Source: a virus
IMG/VR virus record: IMGVR_UViG_3300037099_000223
Span: 1-36,386 of that record
Strand: one strand, 5' to 3'
Length of the DNA stretch: 36,386 bases
The position numbers were made by a program, and so were the translations under genes. This document shows positions 18,432 to 33,752 of this stretch, piece after piece. The notes beneath the pieces are model-generated. The model was given only the letters and a program-made list of their open reading frames with translations, had not been told where the DNA came from and did not search any database. Position 1 is the stretch's first letter; every line of letters starts with the position of its first letter.

Positions 18432-18457
18432 AACCTCAAGTGAGTGGGGAAACACAA

Positions 18458-18814
18458 ATGAAGAACCCGATCAAGCCGACGACTGCTCTGACGCACGATG
18501 GCGTCGTTTATGAACTCCTGTTCGATTTCGAGGCCACGGCACTGGCCGAAGACGTCTCCGACCGGCCGCTCATCACCGGCCTGAAGCAGCGCGACTTCAA
18601 CCAGCCCTCCATCAATTTAGTGAGGGCCATGTTGTTCGCGTGCATCCATGCCAACCATCCGGAAGTGACCTTCGCACAGGCCAGGGCCATGGTCGATCGC
18701 AAGAACCTTGCGGACGTCTGGCGCACAGTGCTGGCTGCATGGTTCGCGTTCCTCGCCGAGCCCGATCCGGAAAAGGACGCGGCTGGCGCGGACCCCACGA
18801 AGGGCCAGGACTAA
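18458..18814 (+). CDS. Tail assembly chaperone (lambda G-like)
   Basis: 118 residues from ATG 18458 (GGGGA upstream). GVVYELLFDFEATALAEDV and RAMLFACIHANHPEVTFAQA with an acidic end (EPDPEKDAAGADPTKGQD) match the first product of the paired chaperone genes before the tape measure. A second frame (-1) overlaps its end and continues to 19140, so a longer fusion made by ribosomal slippage is expected. The slip site is probably GAA-AAG at 18770-18775. Confidence 0.8.
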   Translation: MKNPIKPTTALTHDGVVYELLFDFEATALAEDVSDRPLITGLKQRDFNQPSINLVRAMLFACIHANHPEVTFAQARAMVDRKNLADVWRTVLAAWFAFLAEPDPEKDAAGADPTKGQD

Positions 18815-18831: not shown

Positions 18832-19140
18832 ATGGGTCTCTGGTCCTCTGCTCGTTACGACCTTCGTCTCACCGAAGCCGAATTTTGGAAGATGACCGAT
18901 CGTCAGCTCGCCGCGCTCATGCGCCGGCGCCGCGTCGAGATTGAAAGCCGGCAGTATCAAGTCGGCATTCTCGCATCGACTTTCGCCAACTTTTCCATGG
19001 CCCACCCGAAGGAACCTCTCTCCCCTGAAGATTTCATGCCCTCCCGCAAGGTCAAGGAGCCGAGCGACGACGACATCGCCGAGAAATTCGCGGCCTCCTT
19101 CGCGTGCATCGCGCTCAAGCCTGGTGTTCCCACCCGCTAA
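18832..19140 (+). CDS. Tail assembly chaperone extension (lambda T-like), probably made by -1 frameshift
   Basis: The frame is open back to at least 18640, in -1 relation to the 18458 gene. An independent start at ATG 18832 would give 102 residues but has a poor ribosome-binding site, so the usual G-GT frameshift product is more likely. The sequence WSSARYDLRLTEAEFWKMTD, then QLAALMRRRRVEIESRQYQV, is the classical T-domain pattern that meets the tape measure during tail assembly. Confidence 0.78.
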   Translation: MGLWSSARYDLRLTEAEFWKMTDRQLAALMRRRRVEIESRQYQVGILASTFANFSMAHPKEPLSPEDFMPSRKVKEPSDDDIAEKFAASFACIALKPGVPTR

Positions 19141-19156: not shown

Positions 19157-22100
19157 ATGTTCAAGTTCCTTCGTTCAGCGACGATCTTCGCGTTGTCGTG
19201 CCTCGCCATTCCCGCCTTCGCGCAGGGATATGGGTATGTCCACTGGACTATGATCAACCCGGCTTCAGAGTCTTACGTGGTGGTCGGTGGATCGCACATA
19301 CAGAACAGTACGGGTACGCTTCTGGTCAACGGCACAATCTCATTCACGCCGGTCACCAATGCGGGCGCGCCCGTCTCCTACCTGGTGAACGGATTGGGAC
19401 AGGCGATCGACCAGCCGGTGACGACTCTCGTCACGAATGGCGTGTTCGAGATCCAACTCGCGGACACCGCGCTGACCTTCCCGCGCAACGTCTGCTATCT
19501 GGTCACGATCACGGACAACATCAGCGGTAAACATCTCCTGGGGCCTGGCTACAGTTGCGTCCAGCCAGCCGGATCGGGAGTCGCTGTGACGGGTCTCGGT
19601 GCATGGTGCATCGCGGCATCGGGCTCGGTCGGTGGCTCTTGCGACTTCGACTTGTATGAACCAAACTCCGCGCAGCAGCTCCTAATCGGCAACGTCGGCC
19701 CAGCCGGTCCAACAGGTCCTACCGGTCCGACCGGTCCAGCCGGTCCAACAGGCGCCGCAAGTACGGTTCCTGGGCCCACAGGTGCAACAGGCGCGGCCGG
19801 AGCCAACGGGACCGGTTCGACTGTCTCCGTTGGAACCACCGCCACAGGCGCGGCGGGCACTGCGGCCAGCGTCACAAATTCAGGGTCGTCCACCTCGGCA
19901 ATTCTGAATTTTACGATTCCACAGGGCGCGGCCGGTTCAGGCGGCGGCGGCGGCGGAAGCATGGTCTATCCCTCAACCGGGCTGGGCGCCTCGACAGGAT
20001 CGGCCTGGAGGGCGCCAACGTTAAGCGACGTTGTGAGTCTATGGGCTGGCGGCGCTTGCACCGGCTACCTGAAATACGACGGAACATGTTCCACACCTAC
20101 GGGCGCCGTTCCCAGCGTCAACGGCATCGCGGCGGCCGTCACCATCGCTGGTCCGAACGTCACCACCGCCGGGAGCACCATAACGATAGCCGCCGGGAAC
20201 TCGCTGGCGAGCTATCCGCAGAACACGCGCATGTTTTTCTATGGGGACAGCCGCGTATCGGTATCGGGCGCGTGCGGGTGGGAAGGGACGAACATCGCCT
20301 CCAGTACCGTGACGGCCGACGTCTTCACAGCCAATGGAATCGCCGGGCCTGAGACGGTAGGCTATACGCTCTCTTTGTGGGGCTTCACGGGCGCGGGCGC
20401 TCCACTCAACAATCAAAACGTGGTGATCGCCACAGCCAACACCGCCTATCCGTACTCGTTCACAGCCATGGTTACGGGCTACAGCGTAACGGTGAACACC
20501 GGGGCTGGTAACTTCGGTTGCGAATACTCCCCCGCGACGCTCGTCGCGACCAGCCCGTTGATGCCTTCCACGAGCTTCATCCAGGAGGCGTCCGAGGGGG
20601 ACGCCACGATAGCCATGCTCAACGCGGACTATCCGTCCTTGGTCCATCCCTACAGCCCCGCCGTCACGGGCACGCCCGGCGTCCTGATTATGCAGGGCGG
20701 CGTTGTGGACCTTTACGGAGGCACCGGCAGCATATCCACCGTGGAGGCGGGCCTCCAATCTTTTTGGGAGATGGCCCACGCCGATGGGTGGAAGATCGTT
20801 CAAGAGTCCATCATCCCGGAGCCTCAGAGCATCTATTCGGACGGGAATGAGAACGGGGACACCCAAACCATTAACAAGTGGATGACGACGATGCAAAAGC
20901 AGGCTCTCCCGCCCGCGACGGGGGACTACTTCGACATCTTCGTGGACGCTTACTCCCTCATGCCGGACCCCACGGACATCGGGCTTTTCACAGCGACATA
21001 CCACTTGCAGGACGCAGCCAACGCCCGCTTGTTTGGCGCAATCAACTATGCGCTGCTTGACAACTCGAATCCACCAATCCCGGACCTCATTTGCGATACG
21101 TGGACCGGGGCGGCGTGCGCGAGCGCCACACAGACGGTCTTTGGCCGGGCGCTCCCCGTTGCGGCTCAGTCCGGGGACTATAACATCACGCAGGTCACCA
21201 ACGGCGTCAACAGCGTTGCTCCACAGACGGTGCAAGGCACCAAGACCTTTGTGTCGCTTGCCCCCGGCGCTCCGGCCTCCATTGACCGAGCCATAGGGAC
21301 GGGGCCAGCCACGCCCGAAATCGTCCAATACAAAAATGCTCAGGCCAGCTCGATGTCCTTCGCCAACCCGGTCACGGCGGGAGACGCCATTCTCCTGGCA
21401 TGCCTCAACACGGGGTATCAATACCCAAGCGATTCCCTCGGCAACTCTTATGTATTCATCGTGGGCACAGCCAACGTGAGCGGCTCGCCGTATCCGGCTG
21501 GATTCTTCCTCGGGTCTGGGAAATCAACCGTCTCGGTGGCGACAAACGTAACCGGGGGCACCGACACCATCAATTGCAATGGCGGCGGGGACATGATGGC
21601 GATTGAGCTGTCGGGCATCGCCACAACCGGAGCGCAAGACGCGGCAACGGAGTACTCGGTGCACCCTGCGAGCGTCGGCTCTTTCCTAACGGTCCCGTCT
21701 TTCACCACGACGCAAACGGACGCCGTGTTTGAACTGGCGATGTGTACGGGCAGTCAGAGCATCACCTCCGCCGCGTCAACGGGGTTTGCGCTCCTGCCAA
21801 GTTCGGGGGATCTCTCCTGTGGCGGCGCTGACAGCGCTCCGTTCTACTTTCTGTATCAGAATCTGCCGCCGGGCACATATTCGCCAACGGTATCGTATGC
21901 GCCTACCACGTTCGATGGTGAATTAATTCAGATCGGGCTGAAAGCCAACCCGACACCCCCGGCTCAGTTTGGGGACCTCCACCAGGCGCAAAATGCGGCG
22001 GGTGTGACCCTGAGCGGAACCAACGCCCAAGGCATCCCGTATATTGCGCCTCAGACGTACTCCGCCCTTAGTACCGGGACGCCGTGCAACTCAGGCAATG

Positions 22101-22219
22101 AAGGCCGGTACGCTGCCGTGCTGGACAGCACTGTGACCTCCGGAGCAATCGGCGGGGGCGGTTCCAACCACGTCCTGGCGTATTGCGACGGCACAAGCTA
22201 TAAGGTGGCCGCCCCATAA
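19157..22219 (+). CDS. Secreted collagen-like, SGNH-hydrolase-like protein (tail-fibre-like) inserted in the tail operon
   Basis: 1020 residues from ATG 19157 (GGAG upstream). It begins with a textbook Sec signal peptide: MFKFLRS, hydrophobic core, cleavage after AFA at residue 22. Residues 25-175 are beta-rich. Residues 181-222 are collagen-like Gly-Pro-Thr/Ala triplets. A Gly-rich hinge follows, then an SGNH-like domain at about 355-635, with GDS at 363-365, GGVVD at 514-518 where the family has GxND, and H616 in YHLQDAANARLFG. The last 300 residues form another beta domain. It is both fibre-like and secreted, which is unusual. It could be a phage-encoded surface protein of the lysogen or an exported enzyme acting on acetylated surface glycans. 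A 16-bp tandem duplication creates the present stop. Confidence 0.75.
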   Translation: MFKFLRSATIFALSCLAIPAFAQGYGYVHWTMINPASESYVVVGGSHIQNSTGTLLVNGTISFTPVTNAGAPVSYLVNGLGQAIDQPVTTLVTNGVFEIQLADTALTFPRNVCYLVTITDNISGKHLLGPGYSCVQPAGSGVAVTGLGAWCIAASGSVGGSCDFDLYEPNSAQQLLIGNVGPAGPTGPTGPTGPAGPTGAASTVPGPTGATGAAGANGTGSTVSVGTTATGAAGTAASVTNSGSSTSAILNFTIPQGAAGSGGGGGGSMVYPSTGLGASTGSAWRAPTLSDVVSLWAGGACTGYLKYDGTCSTPTGAVPSVNGIAAAVTIAGPNVTTAGSTITIAAGNSLASYPQNTRMFFYGDSRVSVSGACGWEGTNIASSTVTADVFTANGIAGPETVGYTLSLWGFTGAGAPLNNQNVVIATANTAYPYSFTAMVTGYSVTVNTGAGNFGCEYSPATLVATSPLMPSTSFIQEASEGDATIAMLNADYPSLVHPYSPAVTGTPGVLIMQGGVVDLYGGTGSISTVEAGLQSFWEMAHADGWKIVQESIIPEPQSIYSDGNENGDTQTINKWMTTMQKQALPPATGDYFDIFVDAYSLMPDPTDIGLFTATYHLQDAANARLFGAINYALLDNSNPPIPDLICDTWTGAACASATQTVFGRALPVAAQSGDYNITQVTNGVNSVAPQTVQGTKTFVSLAPGAPASIDRAIGTGPATPEIVQYKNAQASSMSFANPVTAGDAILLACLNTGYQYPSDSLGNSYVFIVGTANVSGSPYPAGFFLGSGKSTVSVATNVTGGTDTINCNGGGDMMAIELSGIATTGAQDAATEYSVHPASVGSFLTVPSFTTTQTDAVFELAMCTGSQSITSAASTGFALLPSSGDLSCGGADSAPFYFLYQNLPPGTYSPTVSYAPTTFDGELIQIGLKANPTPPAQFGDLHQAQNAAGVTLSGTNAQGIPYIAPQTYSALSTGTPCNSGNEGRYAAVLDSTVTSGAIGGGGSNHVLAYCDGTSYKVAAP

Positions 22220-22261: not shown

Positions 22262-22354
22262 GACAGCGAAATTTTCCACTTGGTAGGTTTGAGCCATACC
22301 GAGGGCGTCGGGGCACCCACTCTGTGGGTCGCGGGCGCCCTTCCCATTGGAGCC
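22262..22354. other. Intergenic hairpin element before the tape measure gene
   Basis: ACCCAC (22315-22320) pairs with GTGGGT (22324-22329) around TCT, with an outer GGGCG (22303-22307)/CGCCC (22336-22340) stem. The block is GC-rich and lacks a T-run. It resembles a REP-type dispersed element more than a terminator, but only one copy is in this window, so origin from a host repeat is a guess. Confidence 0.4.
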
Positions 22355-24877
22355 ATGATGGCCAGCAGAAAAGTAGCGAGCGCGTATGTAGACCTCCAAC
22401 TGCAGACGGCGCAGTTCAAGGCGGCGATCGGTGAATCGACCGCGCTGACCAGGCAGTTCTCCGCCTCAATGCGCGAGGAGATGGAGCACTCCCGCGAGTC
22501 CGTGCGCCTCATGTCCGAGGAGCTTGGCCTGGGCATTCCCCGCGGGTTGCAGCAAATCATCTCCAAATTGCCCGGCGTGTCCACCGCGATGAGCCTCGCG
22601 TTTGACTCTGTCGTTGTGTTCGCGCTCATCGACACCGTGGTCAAGGTCACCGAGAAGATCGTTGAATTCACGAAGAAGACGGACGAGGGGGCGCGGAAAA
22701 ACGCCGAAGCCAATGCCAGGTTCTCAGACTCGCTGGCCAAATCGAATGCCGAACTCGCTGTCAGCCTGGATAAGGTTCAGGATCACATCGCGGTGCTTGA
22801 GCACAAGCCCAAGAATGGTGTGAAAGACGCCCTTGACGATGCGGCCGTCGCGTCGGAAAAGCTCTCCAAGGACCTGGACGACAACATCCAAAAGATGCGC
22901 GTGCTGCTCTCCGGAGAGAGCGCCAAGTGGTACCAGCAGATGCTCGGGGCGGGAAGTAACGCCTACTCCAACGAACAGCTTGAGCAGTACCAGGCCAACC
23001 AGCGTGACGTGAACGCCGCCTCCGATCAGGAACTCAAGAACCCCAAAGTTTACGGGGGTGTGGACCAGATAGAACTTCGCCGGCGCCGGAACCTGGCCGC
23101 AGGCACCACGGGGTACTACAACCAGATCGGCACGGATATAGTCGACCTCAACAGGTATCAGGCATTGAGGAAAGAGAACGATGCTCTCGGCATCGGTTCC
23201 GACTACTTTGGCCGGAGCCTTCCGGGTGGCGAGGCCGCCCAATTTGCCGGATATGCCGCAAGGTTCGGTTATGGCGATCAATCGGCGCAGATCTCCTCGC
23301 TCACAAACCAGCAGGGGCGGGTTGGACAGCTTGCTCAGTCACAATGGATTGAAGCGGGAATGACGTCGGGGGTGTCCACCGAGAAAGGGGACGAGGAGAA
23401 GAGCCGGCTCACCGCGGCCGCGAAGGCCGCGGCCGATAAGTGGATGAAGGCGCAGGAGGATGCGTTCAAGGCCGTGAATGTGCCGCCCGCGGACCTCCCG
23501 GCGGGATCGGCGGCCTATGACAAGTGGGCGTCAAAGAGTCCCCAGCGCGAGCAGGATTTCCTGCTGTCCGGACCCGCACCCACTGCTGCTCAGGGGGGTT
23601 CCGAGGCAATCAAGCTTCTTACGGCGAAAGTCGGCGAGCTGAACGCAGCGATGCAGACGGACGCGAGGAAACAAAATGACCGGGATTACGACAAAAATAC
23701 CGAGGCCGCACTTGCGTTAGGAAGAGCGCTCGACGAGGCGGACCGTAAGGCCGCTGAAACCGCTGGGAAATTGACTTCCGCCCAAGAGAAGTACGCCGCC
23801 GAGGTGAAGAGGGGCGCGGAGCAGATGGCTTCCATCGCCGCGAAGCACACCATTGACGCGGCTCACATCGGTCTGGCGAACCACTCCATCGGTCCTCGCA
23901 CCGCTGCGCTCGTCGAGGCGCAAGCTCATGCGACGGAAGCGAACGCGAAGCTCGTAGCCGCGAGCGCCGATCTGCTCAAGCTTGAGGCGGATGCGAAGGG
24001 CCTGATTGCAGGCACTCCCGAGTACGTCGAGAACGCGACCACGCAATTAGGCGTCCGGAATCAGATCGCGGGGATCGACGCCGACGCCTCAAGGCAGGCT
24101 GCGGATGACGCGGCGAGGACCGCTCAGACCACCTTCTCCGGCAGGATGACCTCCGACCTCGACAAGTGGATCGAGCAGTCCACCGATCTCGCCGGCATCA
24201 TGGGCGGCCTGTTCACCGGTTCGATCAACCAGGTCAACGACGCAATCCTCAAGGTGCTGACCACAAAGCCTTCGATGAATGACCGGCATCCCTTTCGGGC
24301 GGCCGGTCACGCCGTGTTCACGGACGTCGCGGGCGCAGGCTTGAAGGGAGCCGAAGGCGAACTGATGAAAGCGCTCGGCCTCCATGGGCGCGACGTCAAG
24401 CACGTCATCGTCGACAACATGCCCGGAGCCAAAGGCGCTGTGCCCGGCGTACCCGCGAGCATGTTCGATTCCATGGCCAACCCAAGCCGGGATCCCTCTC
24501 CGTCTTCGGGCGCCGGAGCGTCGAGCTTCATGAGCGGTGTGCTCAAAATTGTTCCCTTCATCGCAGGCGCATTCGGGGACGGCGGCACGGTGAGTCCCGG
24601 CGGCTGGAACCTTGTCGGCGAGCATGGCCCCGAGCTGCTGCAGGTGGGATCCACTTCCAGGATCAACAACGCGCGCGACACAGCGGGCATATTCGGCGCC
24701 GGATCGGCCGCCGGTTCCGCAACTCACAACTGGAACATCGACGCCCGCGGCGCGACGGATCCAGCCGCCATCAACATGGCCGTCCAGCGCGGCATCGTAG
24801 CCGCCGCCCCTCACATCATCGCGGCCTCGCACGAAGCTGAGGCTGCGCACAAGCGGCGTCTCCCCAACCAGCGGTAA
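22355..24877 (+). CDS. Tape measure protein
   Basis: 840 residues from ATG 22355 (ATG 22358 possible), with GGAG upstream. The N-terminal part is a long alpha-helical, coiled-coil region (SAYVDLQLQTAQFKAAIGES, KVTEKIVEFTKKTDEGARKN) with a hydrophobic helix near 80-110. The middle is charged and Ala-rich. The C-terminus has the usual tape-measure ending (FGDGGTVSPGGWNLVGEHGP, then ELLQVGS). At about 0.15 nm per residue it predicts a tail near 125 nm. It sets tail length and is injected with DNA. Unusually, it is separated from its chaperones by the 1020-aa secreted protein. Confidence 0.88.
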   Translation: MMASRKVASAYVDLQLQTAQFKAAIGESTALTRQFSASMREEMEHSRESVRLMSEELGLGIPRGLQQIISKLPGVSTAMSLAFDSVVVFALIDTVVKVTEKIVEFTKKTDEGARKNAEANARFSDSLAKSNAELAVSLDKVQDHIAVLEHKPKNGVKDALDDAAVASEKLSKDLDDNIQKMRVLLSGESAKWYQQMLGAGSNAYSNEQLEQYQANQRDVNAASDQELKNPKVYGGVDQIELRRRRNLAAGTTGYYNQIGTDIVDLNRYQALRKENDALGIGSDYFGRSLPGGEAAQFAGYAARFGYGDQSAQISSLTNQQGRVGQLAQSQWIEAGMTSGVSTEKGDEEKSRLTAAAKAAADKWMKAQEDAFKAVNVPPADLPAGSAAYDKWASKSPQREQDFLLSGPAPTAAQGGSEAIKLLTAKVGELNAAMQTDARKQNDRDYDKNTEAALALGRALDEADRKAAETAGKLTSAQEKYAAEVKRGAEQMASIAAKHTIDAAHIGLANHSIGPRTAALVEAQAHATEANAKLVAASADLLKLEADAKGLIAGTPEYVENATTQLGVRNQIAGIDADASRQAADDAARTAQTTFSGRMTSDLDKWIEQSTDLAGIMGGLFTGSINQVNDAILKVLTTKPSMNDRHPFRAAGHAVFTDVAGAGLKGAEGELMKALGLHGRDVKHVIVDNMPGAKGAVPGVPASMFDSMANPSRDPSPSSGAGASSFMSGVLKIVPFIAGAFGDGGTVSPGGWNLVGEHGPELLQVGSTSRINNARDTAGIFGAGSAAGSATHNWNIDARGATDPAAINMAVQRGIVAAAPHIIAASHEAEAAHKRRLPNQR

Positions 24878-26138: not shown

Positions 26139-26630
26139 ATGTCCGCAACTCCTGTCATCCCGGCAGCCGCTCCCGCTGCGCCCGCGAAACTCAAGCGCGC
26201 TCAGCACTGGGCTACGCGCAGTCTGCACCAATTCCTGATCGACCGAGCCACCGCCAGGTTCGCGTGGGGCACGCATGACTGCGCCCTCTTTGCCGCGGAC
26301 GGCGTTCAGGCAATGACTGGGGTGGATATCGCCTCCGACTTCCGTGGTCGGTACATGGACGAGGCCGGCGCGAAGGCTGCGATCGCGAGAATCACGGGCG
26401 TTGCCAACGGCACTGTCGAGGACGCCGCCGCCTGGTGCGCGGCGAAGCATGGGCTCGTTGAACTGATTCACCCCCTCATGGCGCAGCGCGGCGACCTGGT
26501 CGTCCTCGAGGATGCCGGCCGGGTCATTGCCGGCCTGGTCCATCTCAGCGGGCGCCACGTCGCCGCCGCGGGCGAGCAGGGGCTCAAGAAGATACCCATC
26601 GCCGGCGTGAAGAGAGCGTGGCGCGTATGA
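26139..26630 (+). CDS. NlpC/P60-like tail peptidase
   Basis: 163 residues. RFAWGTHDCALFAADGVQAM contains the probable catalytic Cys (C48). AQRGDLVVLE and GLVHLSGRHVA carry the likely catalytic His, and the protein closes with IAGVKRAWRV, as in phage tail peptidases of the lambda gpK type. It may nick peptidoglycan during DNA entry. The first 20 residues are Pro/Ala-rich. Its stop overlaps the tip protein start (ATGA). Confidence 0.8.
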   Translation: MSATPVIPAAAPAAPAKLKRAQHWATRSLHQFLIDRATARFAWGTHDCALFAADGVQAMTGVDIASDFRGRYMDEAGAKAAIARITGVANGTVEDAAAWCAAKHGLVELIHPLMAQRGDLVVLEDAGRVIAGLVHLSGRHVAAAGEQGLKKIPIAGVKRAWRV

Positions 26631-29600
26631 GCAAAGCAATTGAAGGCGCGGCTCTCCTCGGTGTCGCGGCCGGGATATGGTTCCTGGTACCGGGCAGTGT
26701 TGTGTTCGCCCCCTGGTTGATGACCGCGCTGGTGGGAATGGTTGCCGGCGGCGTCTCCATGGAGGGCGCGGCCCTGGCCGATGCCCTGACTCAGAACCGT
26801 GGCCAGAACATCACCACGCGGCAAGCGGCTGGACTGCGCCAGATCATCTATGGGCAGCAGCGAGTCGGTGGCACCACGGTATACCAGAGCACCACTGGCG
26901 CCGGCGGATCCGGCGGAAACTACGTTTACAACTACATCATCGCCCTGGCCTCGCATGAGATCGACGCCGTCATCAACATCTACCTCGACGGCCGCCAGGT
27001 TTACTGGTCGCAGTTCCACGGCGACAACGGAGCGAACATCGGGTGCGGGACTGTATCCGCCCCACCGACCGCCGTCGTCACCATCTCAGGCGGCGCGGTC
27101 ACAGGCGTCACTGCCAGCGGCGGATCCGGGTTCGGCAACATCAAGGCCGGCCGGTACCGTGTGCGCTTCTCCGGAGGCGGCGGTTCCGGCGCGTATGGTT
27201 ACGCCACCAACGCCGGAGCTGGAACCTACGGCACCGATTTTGTCGTGGGTGCATGGACCGTGGTGGTCACGCACCCCGGATCGGGATACACGACTCCGCC
27301 CCAGGCCGACATTCAAGGCGCGTACACGTTTGGCGGGACCGGCGCGGCCGATCAGCAGGACCCTTCCCTTCCCGGCTACGGCCTCGGCTACGGCATTGGC
27401 CCAGGCGGCCCTCATTACGACTTCGCCGGCAAGGTTTTTTGCGAAGTCCGCTTCGGCGATCAGCCGCCCGGCGATTACATGGCGTCCCTGTCGGCCAACG
27501 ATTCGACATGGCCCACGACCGCGAATGGCGGCGGGGTTGCATATCTCTATCTCAACGTCGGGTATGACGTAGCGCAGTTCCCGGCCGCTCCGGAGATCCG
27601 CGTCACGGTCAACGGCAAAAACAACATCTGGGATCCGCGCACCTCCGCGTACGGCTTCAGCTCGAACTGGGCGTTGCAAGTCGCGGACGTTATCGCCGAC
27701 CCGCAGTGGGGCCTGGGAGACAACGCCGTCAATCAGGCGCAGTTGATCGCCGCGGCCAACGTGTGCGACGAACTCATCGCCACGTCGCAGGGCGACGAGT
27801 CGAACTTTCAGCAGCATCTGCACTATGATTCCTCGACCGCGCCGGGCGATGCGCTGTCGCTGATGATGCCCTCCGCCGCGGGCCGTCTCAGCCGCGTCGG
27901 CGGCGAGTGGTTTATATGGCCCGCTTACTGGCAAGGCCCGAGCTTCGCCTTCGATCAGTCCGCGCTCGTCGATCCGTCCGGCATGGCCTGGAAGCCCTAC
28001 CGCAGCCAGAAGGACCTGGTCAATGTGATCAACGGGACTTATATCGCCCCGAACTACCCGTACGCCGTCGCCGGCAACCTTTACGACGCCAACGGCTGGT
28101 ATTACGGAACCACGAACAACCTGTGGCCGTTTGCGTGGCAGCCGACAAACTTCCCGGCCTATGCGCAGGATGTCCTGCACGGCTACGCGGCCAACGAAGA
28201 GCTGATCGAGGACCTCGGCATCGTCCTCCCAAAGGAGTTGACACTCCGCGGCGTCATCTCCATCGTCCAGGCGCAGCGCGTGGCCAAGATCAACCTGATG
28301 CGCAATCGCCGGCAGGGCTCGGGCGTGTTCCCCATGAGCCTGGCCGCGTGGCAGATGGCGCCGATCGATGTGCAGCAGTTCACATTTCCGCAGATGGGCT
28401 GGAGCGACAAGTATCTGGAGGTCGACAAGATCCAGCTCGTGTGCGAGCCCATGAAAGATGCGACCGGTGAAGACGGCGCCCTGGCGTTGTCGACCGCCGT
28501 CAGCGCTCAGGAGACGGGTCCAAGCGACTACGAGTGGTCGGAGACCGAGGAGCTTACGCCTTACGACGTCGCGGCCATCGCCCAGCAGATCCCTTACACG
28601 CCCGCCGCGCCGACAGAGGCCACCGTCACCAGCTCGGCCGGCACCGCGATTATCGGCGCGGATGGCTCGGTTACCCCGCGGGCGCTCGTCGCCTGGAATG
28701 CACCGGCGGACAATACCGTCACCGGCGTCGATGTGCAGTACCAACTCTTTGGCGCAACGACGTGGCTGGACGCCGGCATCACCAATGTCGCGCTGTTCGA
28801 GGCGCTCGTCGGCCCGCTGATCGCCGGCGATGCCTACAACTTCCAGATTCGCAGCGTTCGGCCGAGCGGCAGCTATTCGCCCTGGGTCCAGGTACTGAAC
28901 GTGACCATCAGCATCACGCTGGCGTCGTCGGCAACGAGCGGCGACGCCATCGCCCCGGCGGGAACACTGGTCGCGCTGGCGTTATCGACGGGGACCGCGA
29001 ACATCATCGTGCAGCCGTTCGAGGCGGTGGTGGGCGTGCACGGCGTTGCCTGCCTCCCCGCCGGCAGCTACACGATCACGGGCCTCGCGCAGGGGCAGGC
29101 CTTCTACGTCTATTACATCGACCCGACGTTCGCCGGCGGCGCGATCACTCCGATCGCAACGCAAAACGCGGCGGACTTCCTGAACAAGGTTGGCTACTTC
29201 CTCATCGGCGACATCGTCACGCCGAACTACGTCACCACTTACACCCCGAGCAGCTACGCGGACACCGGCGCCTCGGCAACCGCCAACCCCGCGAACGCGT
29301 ACGGCGGCAACCCAACTCTCGCGTCCAAGGTGCAGGGTTACTGGTCCTCGACGTCGGCTGGCGCGGCGCCCCCGGTGTATGAGACCTTCTCGTATTTCGA
29401 CTACGAGGGGATTTGCACCTGGTCCGGATTCCCGAGCGTGGTCGCAACCGCGGCCAAGACGCTCAACATCACCGCCGGGTTCGCCCTGGGTAATTGCGCC
29501 GCGATGTACGGCTATCTGGGCGTGACCATCGCCGGCGTAACGGCCACGATCGTGACATCCCTCGGCACCCTTGGGGCGATCCTTTACACCGTGACGATTC

Positions 29601-29734
29601 CCTCGGGCACGGATCTGTCGACCATCAGTGTCACCGCGCAATGCACGGTCACCAACATCACGCTGACCTATGTCGACCCGTCACCAAACGACGGGACGGC
29701 GATCGTCTCGGTGAGCGGCATTTTCATTCAATAA
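26627..29734 (+). CDS. Large tail tip / host specificity protein (lambda J position)
   Basis: 1035 residues from ATG 26627. The N-terminus has two hydrophobic segments (GAALLGVAAGIWFLVPGSVV, APWLMTALVGMVAGGVSM). Then RQAAGLRQIIYGQQRVGG and NYIIALASHEIDAVINIYLD mark the tip-protein core. Glycine-rich inserts at about 155-245 (TASGGSGFG, GSGYTTPPQ) look like a beta-repeat decoration. A fibronectin-III-like domain covers about 660-770 (ALVAWNAPADNTVTGVDVQY, PSGSYSPW). The C-terminal 250 residues are variable beta structure, likely receptor-binding. The last gene of the tail module. Confidence 0.85.
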   Translation: MSKAIEGAALLGVAAGIWFLVPGSVVFAPWLMTALVGMVAGGVSMEGAALADALTQNRGQNITTRQAAGLRQIIYGQQRVGGTTVYQSTTGAGGSGGNYVYNYIIALASHEIDAVINIYLDGRQVYWSQFHGDNGANIGCGTVSAPPTAVVTISGGAVTGVTASGGSGFGNIKAGRYRVRFSGGGGSGAYGYATNAGAGTYGTDFVVGAWTVVVTHPGSGYTTPPQADIQGAYTFGGTGAADQQDPSLPGYGLGYGIGPGGPHYDFAGKVFCEVRFGDQPPGDYMASLSANDSTWPTTANGGGVAYLYLNVGYDVAQFPAAPEIRVTVNGKNNIWDPRTSAYGFSSNWALQVADVIADPQWGLGDNAVNQAQLIAAANVCDELIATSQGDESNFQQHLHYDSSTAPGDALSLMMPSAAGRLSRVGGEWFIWPAYWQGPSFAFDQSALVDPSGMAWKPYRSQKDLVNVINGTYIAPNYPYAVAGNLYDANGWYYGTTNNLWPFAWQPTNFPAYAQDVLHGYAANEELIEDLGIVLPKELTLRGVISIVQAQRVAKINLMRNRRQGSGVFPMSLAAWQMAPIDVQQFTFPQMGWSDKYLEVDKIQLVCEPMKDATGEDGALALSTAVSAQETGPSDYEWSETEELTPYDVAAIAQQIPYTPAAPTEATVTSSAGTAIIGADGSVTPRALVAWNAPADNTVTGVDVQYQLFGATTWLDAGITNVALFEALVGPLIAGDAYNFQIRSVRPSGSYSPWVQVLNVTISITLASSATSGDAIAPAGTLVALALSTGTANIIVQPFEAVVGVHGVACLPAGSYTITGLAQGQAFYVYYIDPTFAGGAITPIATQNAADFLNKVGYFLIGDIVTPNYVTTYTPSSYADTGASATANPANAYGGNPTLASKVQGYWSSTSAGAAPPVYETFSYFDYEGICTWSGFPSVVATAAKTLNITAGFALGNCAAMYGYLGVTIAGVTATIVTSLGTLGAILYTVTIPSGTDLSTISVTAQCTVTNITLTYVDPSPNDGTAIVSVSGIFIQ

Positions 29735-32843: not shown

Positions 32844-33752
32844 TTAGTAGGCCAAAAGGTCGTTCGGCGCGTGTACCAGGTCCTGCTCGGTTCCCAGGTA
32901 CCGCGCGGTGGTGCGGATGTCGGCGTGCCCAAGCATCTTCTGGATCTGCTCGATGCTGGCGCCCCTCTCGTAGCAGTGCTTGGCGCAGGTGCGGCGCAGG
33001 TCGTGGGGGCCGAAGTTGGCGACGCCTATTTTCGCGGCGGCGGCGCGCACGATATTCCAGATGGTTGCCGAGGAAACCCCGCCGGGCGCGAGCGTGGTCT
33101 GGCGGATCAGCCTCCCATCGCGGATCTTCGCGGCGCCGACCCAGGCGTCGATGGCCTGCTTGACCCAGGCCTGGACTCCGACAGTGCGCACCCGGCCGCC
33201 CTTGCTCACCAGGTTGAGAATCACCCAGCGCCCGGCGCGGGGCTGGATATCCTCCAGCTTGAGCGTCAGCAGTTCCTCTTCGCGCAGCGCGCAGCCCACC
33301 AGCACAGCGAGGATGCAGTAATTACGCTTGCCGCGGAGCGTCTTGCGATCGGGGACGGCGAGCAGGTCGCGAACCTGAGCCTCGTTGAGCCAGTTCCCGG
33401 TGCGCTCTCCGCGGCGAGGCAGCCCCGCCACGTTCAACAGATCGAACGCCTGACTCGCATCGATGGCGCCCGATGCGCGCGCTTCCCGGACCAGGGCGCG
33501 GGCCGCGGAAATGCGCAAGTTCACGGTAGAGGCGGAGCTGCCTGCCGCTTTCATGGCCGCGCGCCACTCGAGCAGCAGGATTCTGGTGATGGGGCGACCG
33601 TCGGCGAAGGCCAGCAGATCGGCGACGCCTTTGGCGTAGCTCGCTCGGGTGTTGCGCGACGGGACCGAGGCTAAAACCAAATTGACGAGGGCCGTTGTCT
33701 CGGGGTCTCCCGACAACAGCCAGGGAGCGGGTTTGGCGTGCGCGTTGGGCAT
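32844..33752 (-). CDS. int: Tyrosine recombinase / integrase
   Basis: 302 residues, Xer/phage-integrase size. The N-terminal SAM-like core-binding domain is at about 15-105 (RNTRASYAKGVADLLAFADG). The catalytic domain shows R157 in CALREEEL, K184 in SKGGRVRT, H250 and R253 in HDLRRT, H276 in LGHADI and the nucleophile Y285 in TARYLG. All six residues are present, so it should be active. It may integrate the phage, or, given the ParA cassette, resolve multimers of an extrachromosomal form as Cre does for P1. It is convergent with the late operon; the gap on the start side is the likely attachment region. Confidence 0.93.
   Translation of the reverse strand: MPNAHAKPAPWLLSGDPETTALVNLVLASVPSRNTRASYAKGVADLLAFADGRPITRILLLEWRAAMKAAGSSASTVNLRISAARALVREARASGAIDASQAFDLLNVAGLPRRGERTGNWLNEAQVRDLLAVPDRKTLRGKRNYCILAVLVGCALREEELLTLKLEDIQPRAGRWVILNLVSKGGRVRTVGVQAWVKQAIDAWVGAAKIRDGRLIRQTTLAPGGVSSATIWNIVRAAAAKIGVANFGPHDLRRTCAKHCYERGASIEQIQKMLGHADIRTTARYLGTEQDLVHAPNDLLAY

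What the first reader, a model, noticed from the sequence alone, without database searches (positions are those of the whole stretch)
19157..22219. Signal-peptide-bearing, collagen-like, SGNH-like giant protein inserted between tail chaperones and tape measure
The sequence shows a clean Sec signal peptide, Gly-Pro-Thr triplets and GDS/GGVVD/H blocks of an SGNH-type domain in one 1020-aa protein, inside the otherwise invariant chaperone-to-tape-measure junction. Phage fibres are assembled in the cytoplasm and do not carry cleavable signal peptides. This protein may therefore be a secreted or surface protein made by the infected or lysogenic cell (glycan deacetylase, receptor masking, biofilm matrix) or a new kind of fibre.
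Basis: partly seen in the sequence, partly recalled or inferred. Interest (0 to 1): 0.78.

Follow-up and report, generated by a model that had tools for sequence, protein, structure and literature searches.

The report
Phage tail fibre carrying secretion signal
A gene in the tail-building operon of a soil-bacterium (Acidobacteriaceae) phage encodes what looks like a host-binding tail fibre, but it carries a genuine export signal that is conserved across dozens of related phages, which suggests that the fibre leaves the cytoplasm on its own instead of being built into the virus there.

Summary
P0001 (19157-22219, 1020 aa) has a Sec signal peptide (MFKFLRSATIFALSCLAIPAFA|Q), a beta-sandwich with four cysteines, collagen-like triplets and a divergent SGNH-like domain, in the late tail operon between the tail chaperones and the tape measure. 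Its first ~175 residues define a family found here only in tail operons of Acidobacteriaceae phages (74 proteins compared). The modelled N-module best matches virion-docking domains of phage appendages. The variable distal parts are SGNH, lectin, CBM, propeller or beta-helix domains. The family has signal-bearing (58) and signal-less (16) members, at equivalent operon positions in several phages. In signal-bearing members cysteines come in even numbers (57/58); signal-less members never have the C113-C134 pair. Predicted cleavage leaves an N-terminus close to that of signal-less fibres. I infer a Sec-exported, disulfide-bonded, fibre-type protein. Whether it then docks on virions at lysis or acts free is undecided. 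SGNH activity of P0001 itself is doubtful: Ser365 and His616 are kept, but the motif Asn and Asp are lost, and structure prediction failed.

The parts
19157..22219 (+). P0001: Sec-signal-bearing fibre-type protein, 1020 aa
   Evidence: ORF with GGAG 8 nt upstream of ATG; N-terminal ~175 aa conserved at this junction in relatives
19157..19222 (+). Sec signal peptide, residues 1-22, predicted cleavage AFA|QGYGY
   Evidence: n/h/c-region rule met; 56/58 relatives vs 34/446 control genes
19223..19681 (+). Virion-docking-type N-module (residues 23-175), beta-sandwich with C113, C134, C151, C162
   Evidence: Alignment; AlphaFold2 pLDDT 84.7; VIA-align Z 9.7-7.8 to phage appendage docking domains
19688..19810 (+). 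Collagen-like Gly-X-Y segment (residues 178-218)
   Evidence: Pfam Collagen E 0.0055, below cut-off; 24-residue unbroken GXY run
19814..20005 (+). Fibre-type repeat 'VGTTATGAAGTAASVTNSG...ILNFTIPQG' (residues 220-283)
   Evidence: PHROG tail fiber 10972 (176-247, E 9.8e-6) and phrog_21765; same segment in relatives L069, L085
20174..21106 (+). Divergent SGNH/GDSL-like domain (residues 340-650): S365, GGVVD with D518, H616
   Evidence: Pfam GDSL_2 E 4.4e-4 below cut-off; phmmer to L144 i-E 3e-4 aligning GVVD with GIND; AF2 failed
22028..22207 (+). C-terminal ~60-aa cap (residues 958-1017, two Cys) shared with the signal-bearing protein of L020
   Evidence: 47% identity to the end of L020:14613-16496
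18440..18814 (+). Tail assembly chaperone (G-like)
   Evidence: PHROG 2115 tail protein E 3.5e-12
18841..19140 (+). Second chaperone frame (T-like), ends 16 nt before P0001
   Evidence: ORF in another frame, 48-63% identical in relatives with this junction
22280..24877 (+). Tape measure protein (start approximate)
   Evidence: Tape_meas_lam_C E 0.014; collinear in relatives
26618..29734 (+). Tail tip/central fibre (J-like), a separate gene
   Evidence: PHROG 5616 tail fiber protein E 9e-47
32844..33752 (-). Tyrosine integrase: the phage is temperate
   Evidence: Pfam Phage_integrase E 3.9e-27

Best explanation
P0001 is a side-tail-fibre-type protein that takes the Sec route. Translated late with the tail genes, it is sent by its signal peptide through the inner membrane, cleaved after residue 22, and its N-module forms two disulfides (C113-C134 and C151-C162) in the periplasm. 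With no membrane or outer-membrane anchor it waits there as a soluble fibre. At lysis it meets the virions made in the cytoplasm and docks through the N-module, while the collagen-like stem displays the distal glycan-binding or glycan-modifying domain (here a divergent SGNH) that contacts the next host. Shown here: conserved signal peptide, conserved cysteine pairing, tail-operon context, modular fibre architecture, docking-type fold of the model. Inferred: that export happens, the pairing of the cysteines, docking after lysis, glycan target.
For: Modular design: a conserved N-module (signal peptide plus ~150 aa) at the same junction in L005/L026, L008, L010, L020, L021, L044, L046, L054 and L061, with different distal parts. 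Loci collected lie in phage tail operons, or in stretches where I could not label the neighbours. Module in 32/398 genomes sampled from the Acidobacteriaceae and, in 396 sampled from the phylum, only in three already found. The top four PDB alignments of the N-module model are phage appendage or tail-tip chains starting at residue 1-2: A-1(L) tail fibre Z 9.7, A-1(L) neck fibre Z 8.6, Bxb1 tail tip Z 8.1, Ur-lambda tail tip Z 7.8; in A-1(L) the gp82 N-domain attaches the neck fibre to the neck (PMC10966104). Signal peptide rule met in 56/58 vs 0/16; AxA cleavage in 38/56. Cys in the first 143 mature residues even in 57/58 signal-bearing proteins; C113 plus C134 in 0/16 signal-less vs 41/58 signal-bearing. 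Signal-less homologues have 3 residues before the GY core in 13/16; cleaved signal-bearing ones most often 4. SGNH in both forms, lectin domain in both. Phage L013 without the family has a signal-less collagen-like protein after tipJ.
Against: No virion proteomics; no described tailed-phage fibre is known to me to be assembled after export. Docking after lysis would have to work in diluted lysate. VIA-align Z 8-10 for a common beta-sandwich is only moderate: pilins and CnaB-like domains follow at Z 5-7, and Foldseek alone gave no PDB hit at E<=0.001. Signal loss and cysteine loss map to only one or two events on the tree, so their association is not many independent events, although extra cysteines elsewhere also come in pairs. 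Fifteen distant signal-bearing members lack both canonical pairs. Disulfides alone do not require export: virion proteins of phage Milano are heavily disulfide-linked (PMC10491603).
Confidence: 0.45

Rival explanations
1. Exported but never virion-bound: a fibre-derived protein released to the periplasm and, at lysis, to the medium, where its distal domain modifies or masks host glycans so that progeny are freed from debris or competing phages are excluded.
For: Signal peptide and paired cysteines conserved; tandem second copies in L010, L020, L044 and L046; SGNH, lectin and CBM distal domains.
Against: The N-module is shared with signal-less homologues at equivalent tail-operon positions and looks like a virion-docking domain; a free enzyme would not need it. 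No other large fibre gene is seen in the window, so the phage would lack side fibres.
Confidence: 0.3
2. The N-terminal hydrophobic segment is not used for export: the fibre is assembled in the cytoplasm and the segment serves as an assembly or membrane-contact element in the virion.
For: Hydrophobic stretches exist in tail-tip proteins; lambda gpI has one proposed to touch the outer membrane (PMC10721106); the J-like protein of this phage also starts hydrophobic.
Against: The full tripartite signal peptide with AxA|Q/T cleavage is kept while its sequence diverges; even cysteine numbers in 57/58 signal-bearing vs loss of the pair in all signal-less homologues.
Confidence: 0.13
3. A lysogenic-conversion (moron) gene: a secreted or surface protein made by the prophage-carrying cell, such as a receptor mask or matrix protein.
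For: The phage is temperate (integrase) and the protein has a signal peptide; the family wanders within the tail operon; lambda lom is a precedent known to me.
Against: No promoter- or terminator-like site beyond chance around the gene; it lies 16 nt after the chaperone frame; no lipobox, PEP-CTERM or transmembrane anchor in 51 complete members; the signal-less homologues could not reach the cell surface.
Confidence: 0.1

Closest known systems
Virion-docked phage fibres with an N-terminal beta-sandwich (A-1(L) gp82 neck fibre and tail fibre; matching domains in Bxb1 and Ur-lambda tail tips)
   Same: N-terminal domain of similar fold (VIA-align Z 7.8-9.7); encoded in the tail operon; conserved docking end, variable distal end
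   Different: The matched chains start at residue 1-2 without a signal peptide; most members of this family carry a Sec signal and cysteine pairs
Collagen-like phage tail fibres (PHROG 10972)
   Same: Gly-X-Y stem and following repeat (PHROG E 9.8e-6)
   Different: Signal peptide and N-module are not part of that PHROG match
SGNH-domain receptor-binding proteins (phage G7C gp63.1; Klebsiella prophage RBPs, PMC13123978)
   Same: A temperate-phage fibre-type protein with a GDSL/SGNH domain; the domain recurs in many members here
   Different: Those are virion fibres or RBPs; the signal peptide is not mentioned in that paper. P0001 lacks the Asn of GxND and the Asp of DxxH
Sec-exported phage proteins of the lytic phase (signal-peptide endolysin Lys44 of fOg44, SAR endolysins; PMC6116005)
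   Same: Phage late protein with a Sec-type signal
   Different: Those are lysis enzymes, not fibre-type proteins

Membership tests
Phage side tail fibre | Encoded in the structural/tail operon | tested here: met
   Between chaperones and TMP in the window; among tail genes in relatives
Phage side tail fibre | Conserved N-terminal part with exchangeable distal domains | tested here: met
   ~175 aa conserved, distal SGNH/lectin/CBM/propeller/beta-helix
Phage side tail fibre | N-terminal virion-docking fold | tested here: inconclusive
   Top four VIA-align hits are phage appendage or tail-tip chains, Z 9.7-7.8; moderate Z for a common fold
Phage side tail fibre | Made in the cytoplasm without a cleavable signal (usual for described fibres, from my knowledge) | tested here: not met
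   Sec signal peptide in P0001 and in 56/58 signal-bearing relatives by rule
Phage side tail fibre | Present in purified virions; trimeric | not testable with these tools
   Needs proteomics or cryo-EM
SGNH/GDSL hydrolase | Block I GDS with catalytic Ser | tested here: met
   FFYGDSR, S365
SGNH/GDSL hydrolase | Block III GxND (oxyanion Asn) | tested here: not met
   GVVD; L144 GIND aligns to it
SGNH/GDSL hydrolase | Block V DxxH | tested here: not met
   His616 present, Asp replaced (ATYH)
SGNH/GDSL hydrolase | Alpha/beta SGNH fold | tested here: inconclusive
   AlphaFold2 without alignment pLDDT 33; Pfam E 4.4e-4 below cut-off; HHalign no match
Moron / lysogenic-conversion surface protein | Own promoter and terminator | tested here: inconclusive
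   No promoter site on the + strand and one + strand terminator-like site inside the gene; counts not above shuffles, consensus scan only
Moron / lysogenic-conversion surface protein | Surface or membrane anchor | tested here: not met
   0/51 complete signal-bearing members with lipobox, PEP-CTERM or TM segment
Collagen-like protein | Uninterrupted Gly-X-Y repeats | tested here: met
   8 triplets in P0001, up to 45 in the relative L046; Pfam score below cut-off for P0001

The most novel reading that the evidence does not exclude
Acidobacteriaceae siphophages export their side tail fibres by Sec, oxidise and store them in the periplasm, and mount them on virions only when the cell lyses: tail-fibre assembly outside the cytoplasm.
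Probability: 0.4. Interest if true: 0.87.

Novelty: new variant of a known kind. Interest (0 to 1): 0.72.

Why it matters
Tailed-phage fibres are taken to be cytoplasmic products. A family with signal-bearing and signal-less versions of one fibre module, at equivalent operon positions and with matching gain or loss of cysteine pairs, makes the question directly testable: do some tailed phages assemble host-recognition organelles after export? If so, virions would acquire receptor specificity at lysis, possibly from fibres of a co-resident prophage. If instead the proteins stay free, they are a widespread class of phage-made glycan-active exoproteins in abundant soil bacteria. It also warns against calling a protein 'not a fibre' because it has a signal peptide.

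Tried and rejected
SGNH structure of P0001: single-sequence AlphaFold2 gave pLDDT 33 and was not searched; two MAFFT alignments with relatives' SGNH domains misaligned the blocks and were not used for prediction; HHalign to four clear relatives found nothing. P0001 itself has no match in 50,697 phage records, and only one near-identical contig was found in viral contigs by its full length or its SGNH part. Profile search of PDB sequences gave only collagen peptides. Foldseek of the N-module against PDB gave no hit at E<=0.001; against viral models, six at E<=0.001, one of them named minor tail protein. Considered and rejected: mis-called start (conserved GGAG(T)-ATG spacing); host gene picked up by the phage (module found only in phage or unlabelled neighbourhoods); lipoprotein or anchored adhesin. 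Literature searches for signal peptides on tail fibres or Acidobacteria phages found no report; the library is open-access PMC only.

Full report
CHECK OF THE OBSERVATION. The ORF is as described. GGAG lies 8 nt upstream of ATG 19157, and the preceding chaperone frame stops at 19140. Residues 1-22 form a Sec-type signal peptide. No SignalP was available, so I wrote a rule (positive n-region, uncharged hydrophobic core, small residues at -3 and -1). It accepts P0001 and 56/58 homologues classed as signal-bearing, rejects all 16 classed as signal-less, and accepts 34 of 446 other phage genes from the same loci, mainly alanine-rich or hydrophobic N-termini of mtp, tipJ and dt2. The classes were first assigned by eye from the N-termini, so the rule is a consistency check there; the 446 controls are the independent part. 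Collagen triplets and the GDS/GGVVD/H pieces are present.

WHERE IT SITS. The window is a virus record with TerL, portal, capsid protein, head-tail and tail genes, a J-like tip and a tyrosine integrase: a temperate siphophage. TerL- and capsid-matched relatives from IMG/VR show the region between the second chaperone and the tape measure to be variable. L005/L026, L008, L054, L061 and the fragment L021 carry a gene with the same ~175-aa N-terminus; L010, L020, L044 and L046 carry two in tandem; in L012 and L013 the chaperone abuts the tape measure. In other phages the homologue lies after the tape measure, before the tip gene or after the tip gene.

THE FAMILY. Scans with the N-module alignment gave 47 viral loci and four genome loci, all Acidobacteriota. 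A profile search found it in 32 of 398 genomes sampled from one family (that of S. bohemicum), many beside tail genes; some neighbourhoods I could not label. In 396 genomes sampled across the phylum only three matched, all already known from the first sample. So in these samples it is a phage module of Acidobacteriaceae.

FOLD OF THE N-MODULE. AlphaFold2 with 43 rows gave pLDDT 84.7. VIA-align ranks phage chains first: A-1(L) tail fibre (Z 9.7, 95 residues, 2.2 A), A-1(L) neck fibre (Z 8.6), Bxb1 tail tip (Z 8.1), Ur-lambda tail tip (Z 7.8), all starting at chain residue 1 or 2. In A-1(L), gp82N (residues 1-125) attaches the neck fibre to the neck; its authors also note a pilus-like fold (PMC10966104). 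The Z-scores are moderate, and pilins follow at Z 5-7, so this supports docking but does not prove it.

TWO VERSIONS OF ONE MODULE. Of 74 homologues compared, 58 have a signal peptide and 16 start directly at the module (MPTGYT...), each with a start codon there. Signal-less members lie at positions that signal-bearing ones also occupy, most often directly after the tape measure. In the first 143 mature residues, 57/58 signal-bearing proteins have 2, 4 or 6 cysteines, whereas 11/16 signal-less have one; C113 and C134 are both present in 41/58 vs 0/16, C151 and C162 in 38/58 vs 0/16. Predicted cleavage usually leaves about four residues before the GY core, close to the three in signal-less proteins. 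The tree needs two changes of the signal label (bootstrap 1-2); deep branches are signal-bearing under midpoint rooting. Thus the signal/cysteine association reflects one or two events; the even-number rule within the signal-bearing set is the broader evidence.

DISTAL PARTS. GDSL/SGNH domains occur in signal-bearing (L005, L039, L063, L122, L133) and signal-less (L065, L067, L071, L080, L123, L124, L127) members; concanavalin-like lectin domains in both (L064, L066); CBM5/12 and PQQ-type propellers in signal-bearing ones; PD40 propeller repeats and a beta-helix in signal-less ones. These are typical of receptor-binding proteins; SGNH receptor-binding proteins of Klebsiella prophages are active esterases (PMC13123978). 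In P0001 the Asn of GxND and the Asp of DxxH are replaced, and its fold could not be predicted, so it may bind rather than cut.

MECHANISM. Late co-expression with the tail genes is inferred from the tight operon; no promoter- or terminator-like site exceeds chance. Export and disulfide formation are inferred from the conserved signal and cysteines. None of 51 complete signal-bearing proteins has a lipobox, PEP-CTERM or transmembrane anchor, so a soluble periplasmic protein released at lysis is the simplest fate. Docking to virions at that point is inferred from the N-module and its signal-less homologues, from the absence of another large fibre gene in the window, and from a signal-less collagen-like protein (L153:9380-12484) in a phage without the family. 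The main rival is a free glycan-active protein. Virion proteomics would decide.

LIMITS. Most viral records are fragments. The gene calls in relatives are mechanical. The family was assembled from an alignment of eight members, so remote members may be missed. Literature access was open-access PMC only; absence of a report is weak evidence of novelty.

Noticed in passing
window:7648-8370 (+): Protein with sigma-70 region 2 (Pfam E 2e-13) upstream of TerL: possible phage sigma factor for late genes.
   Followed up: no
window:129-1517 (+): Protein combining a helix-turn-helix-like part with a DnaA N-terminal domain (DnaA_N E 3.5e-9), an unusual replication-initiator layout.
   Followed up: no
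window:18640-19140 (+): The second tail-chaperone frame overlaps the first in another frame, suggesting a programmed frameshift as in lambda G/GT; not examined.
   Followed up: no
L010, L020, L044, L046: Two tandem signal-bearing genes with different distal domains (PQQ-type propeller plus collagen in L010, L044 and L046) between chaperones and tape measure.
   Followed up: partly
L067 record G414:C1:63415-63862 (-): A broken second copy of the signal-less module (two pieces, one with a TAA), about 45 kb from the intact one on the same viral record; a possible reservoir for fibre switching.
   Followed up: no
L064, L075, L076: N-module appears interrupted: a partial module match is followed by an inserted segment and a second match.
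   Followed up: no
window:30735-31202 (+): Small glucosaminidase-like protein (Pfam E 3e-6, just below cut-off), probable endolysin.
   Followed up: no
L153:9380-12484 (+): In a relative without the family, a 1035-aa collagen-like protein without signal peptide, starting near 'MNLTWRGTYAATSTYQVGDLAFLNGSSY', lies after the tip gene.
   Followed up: partly
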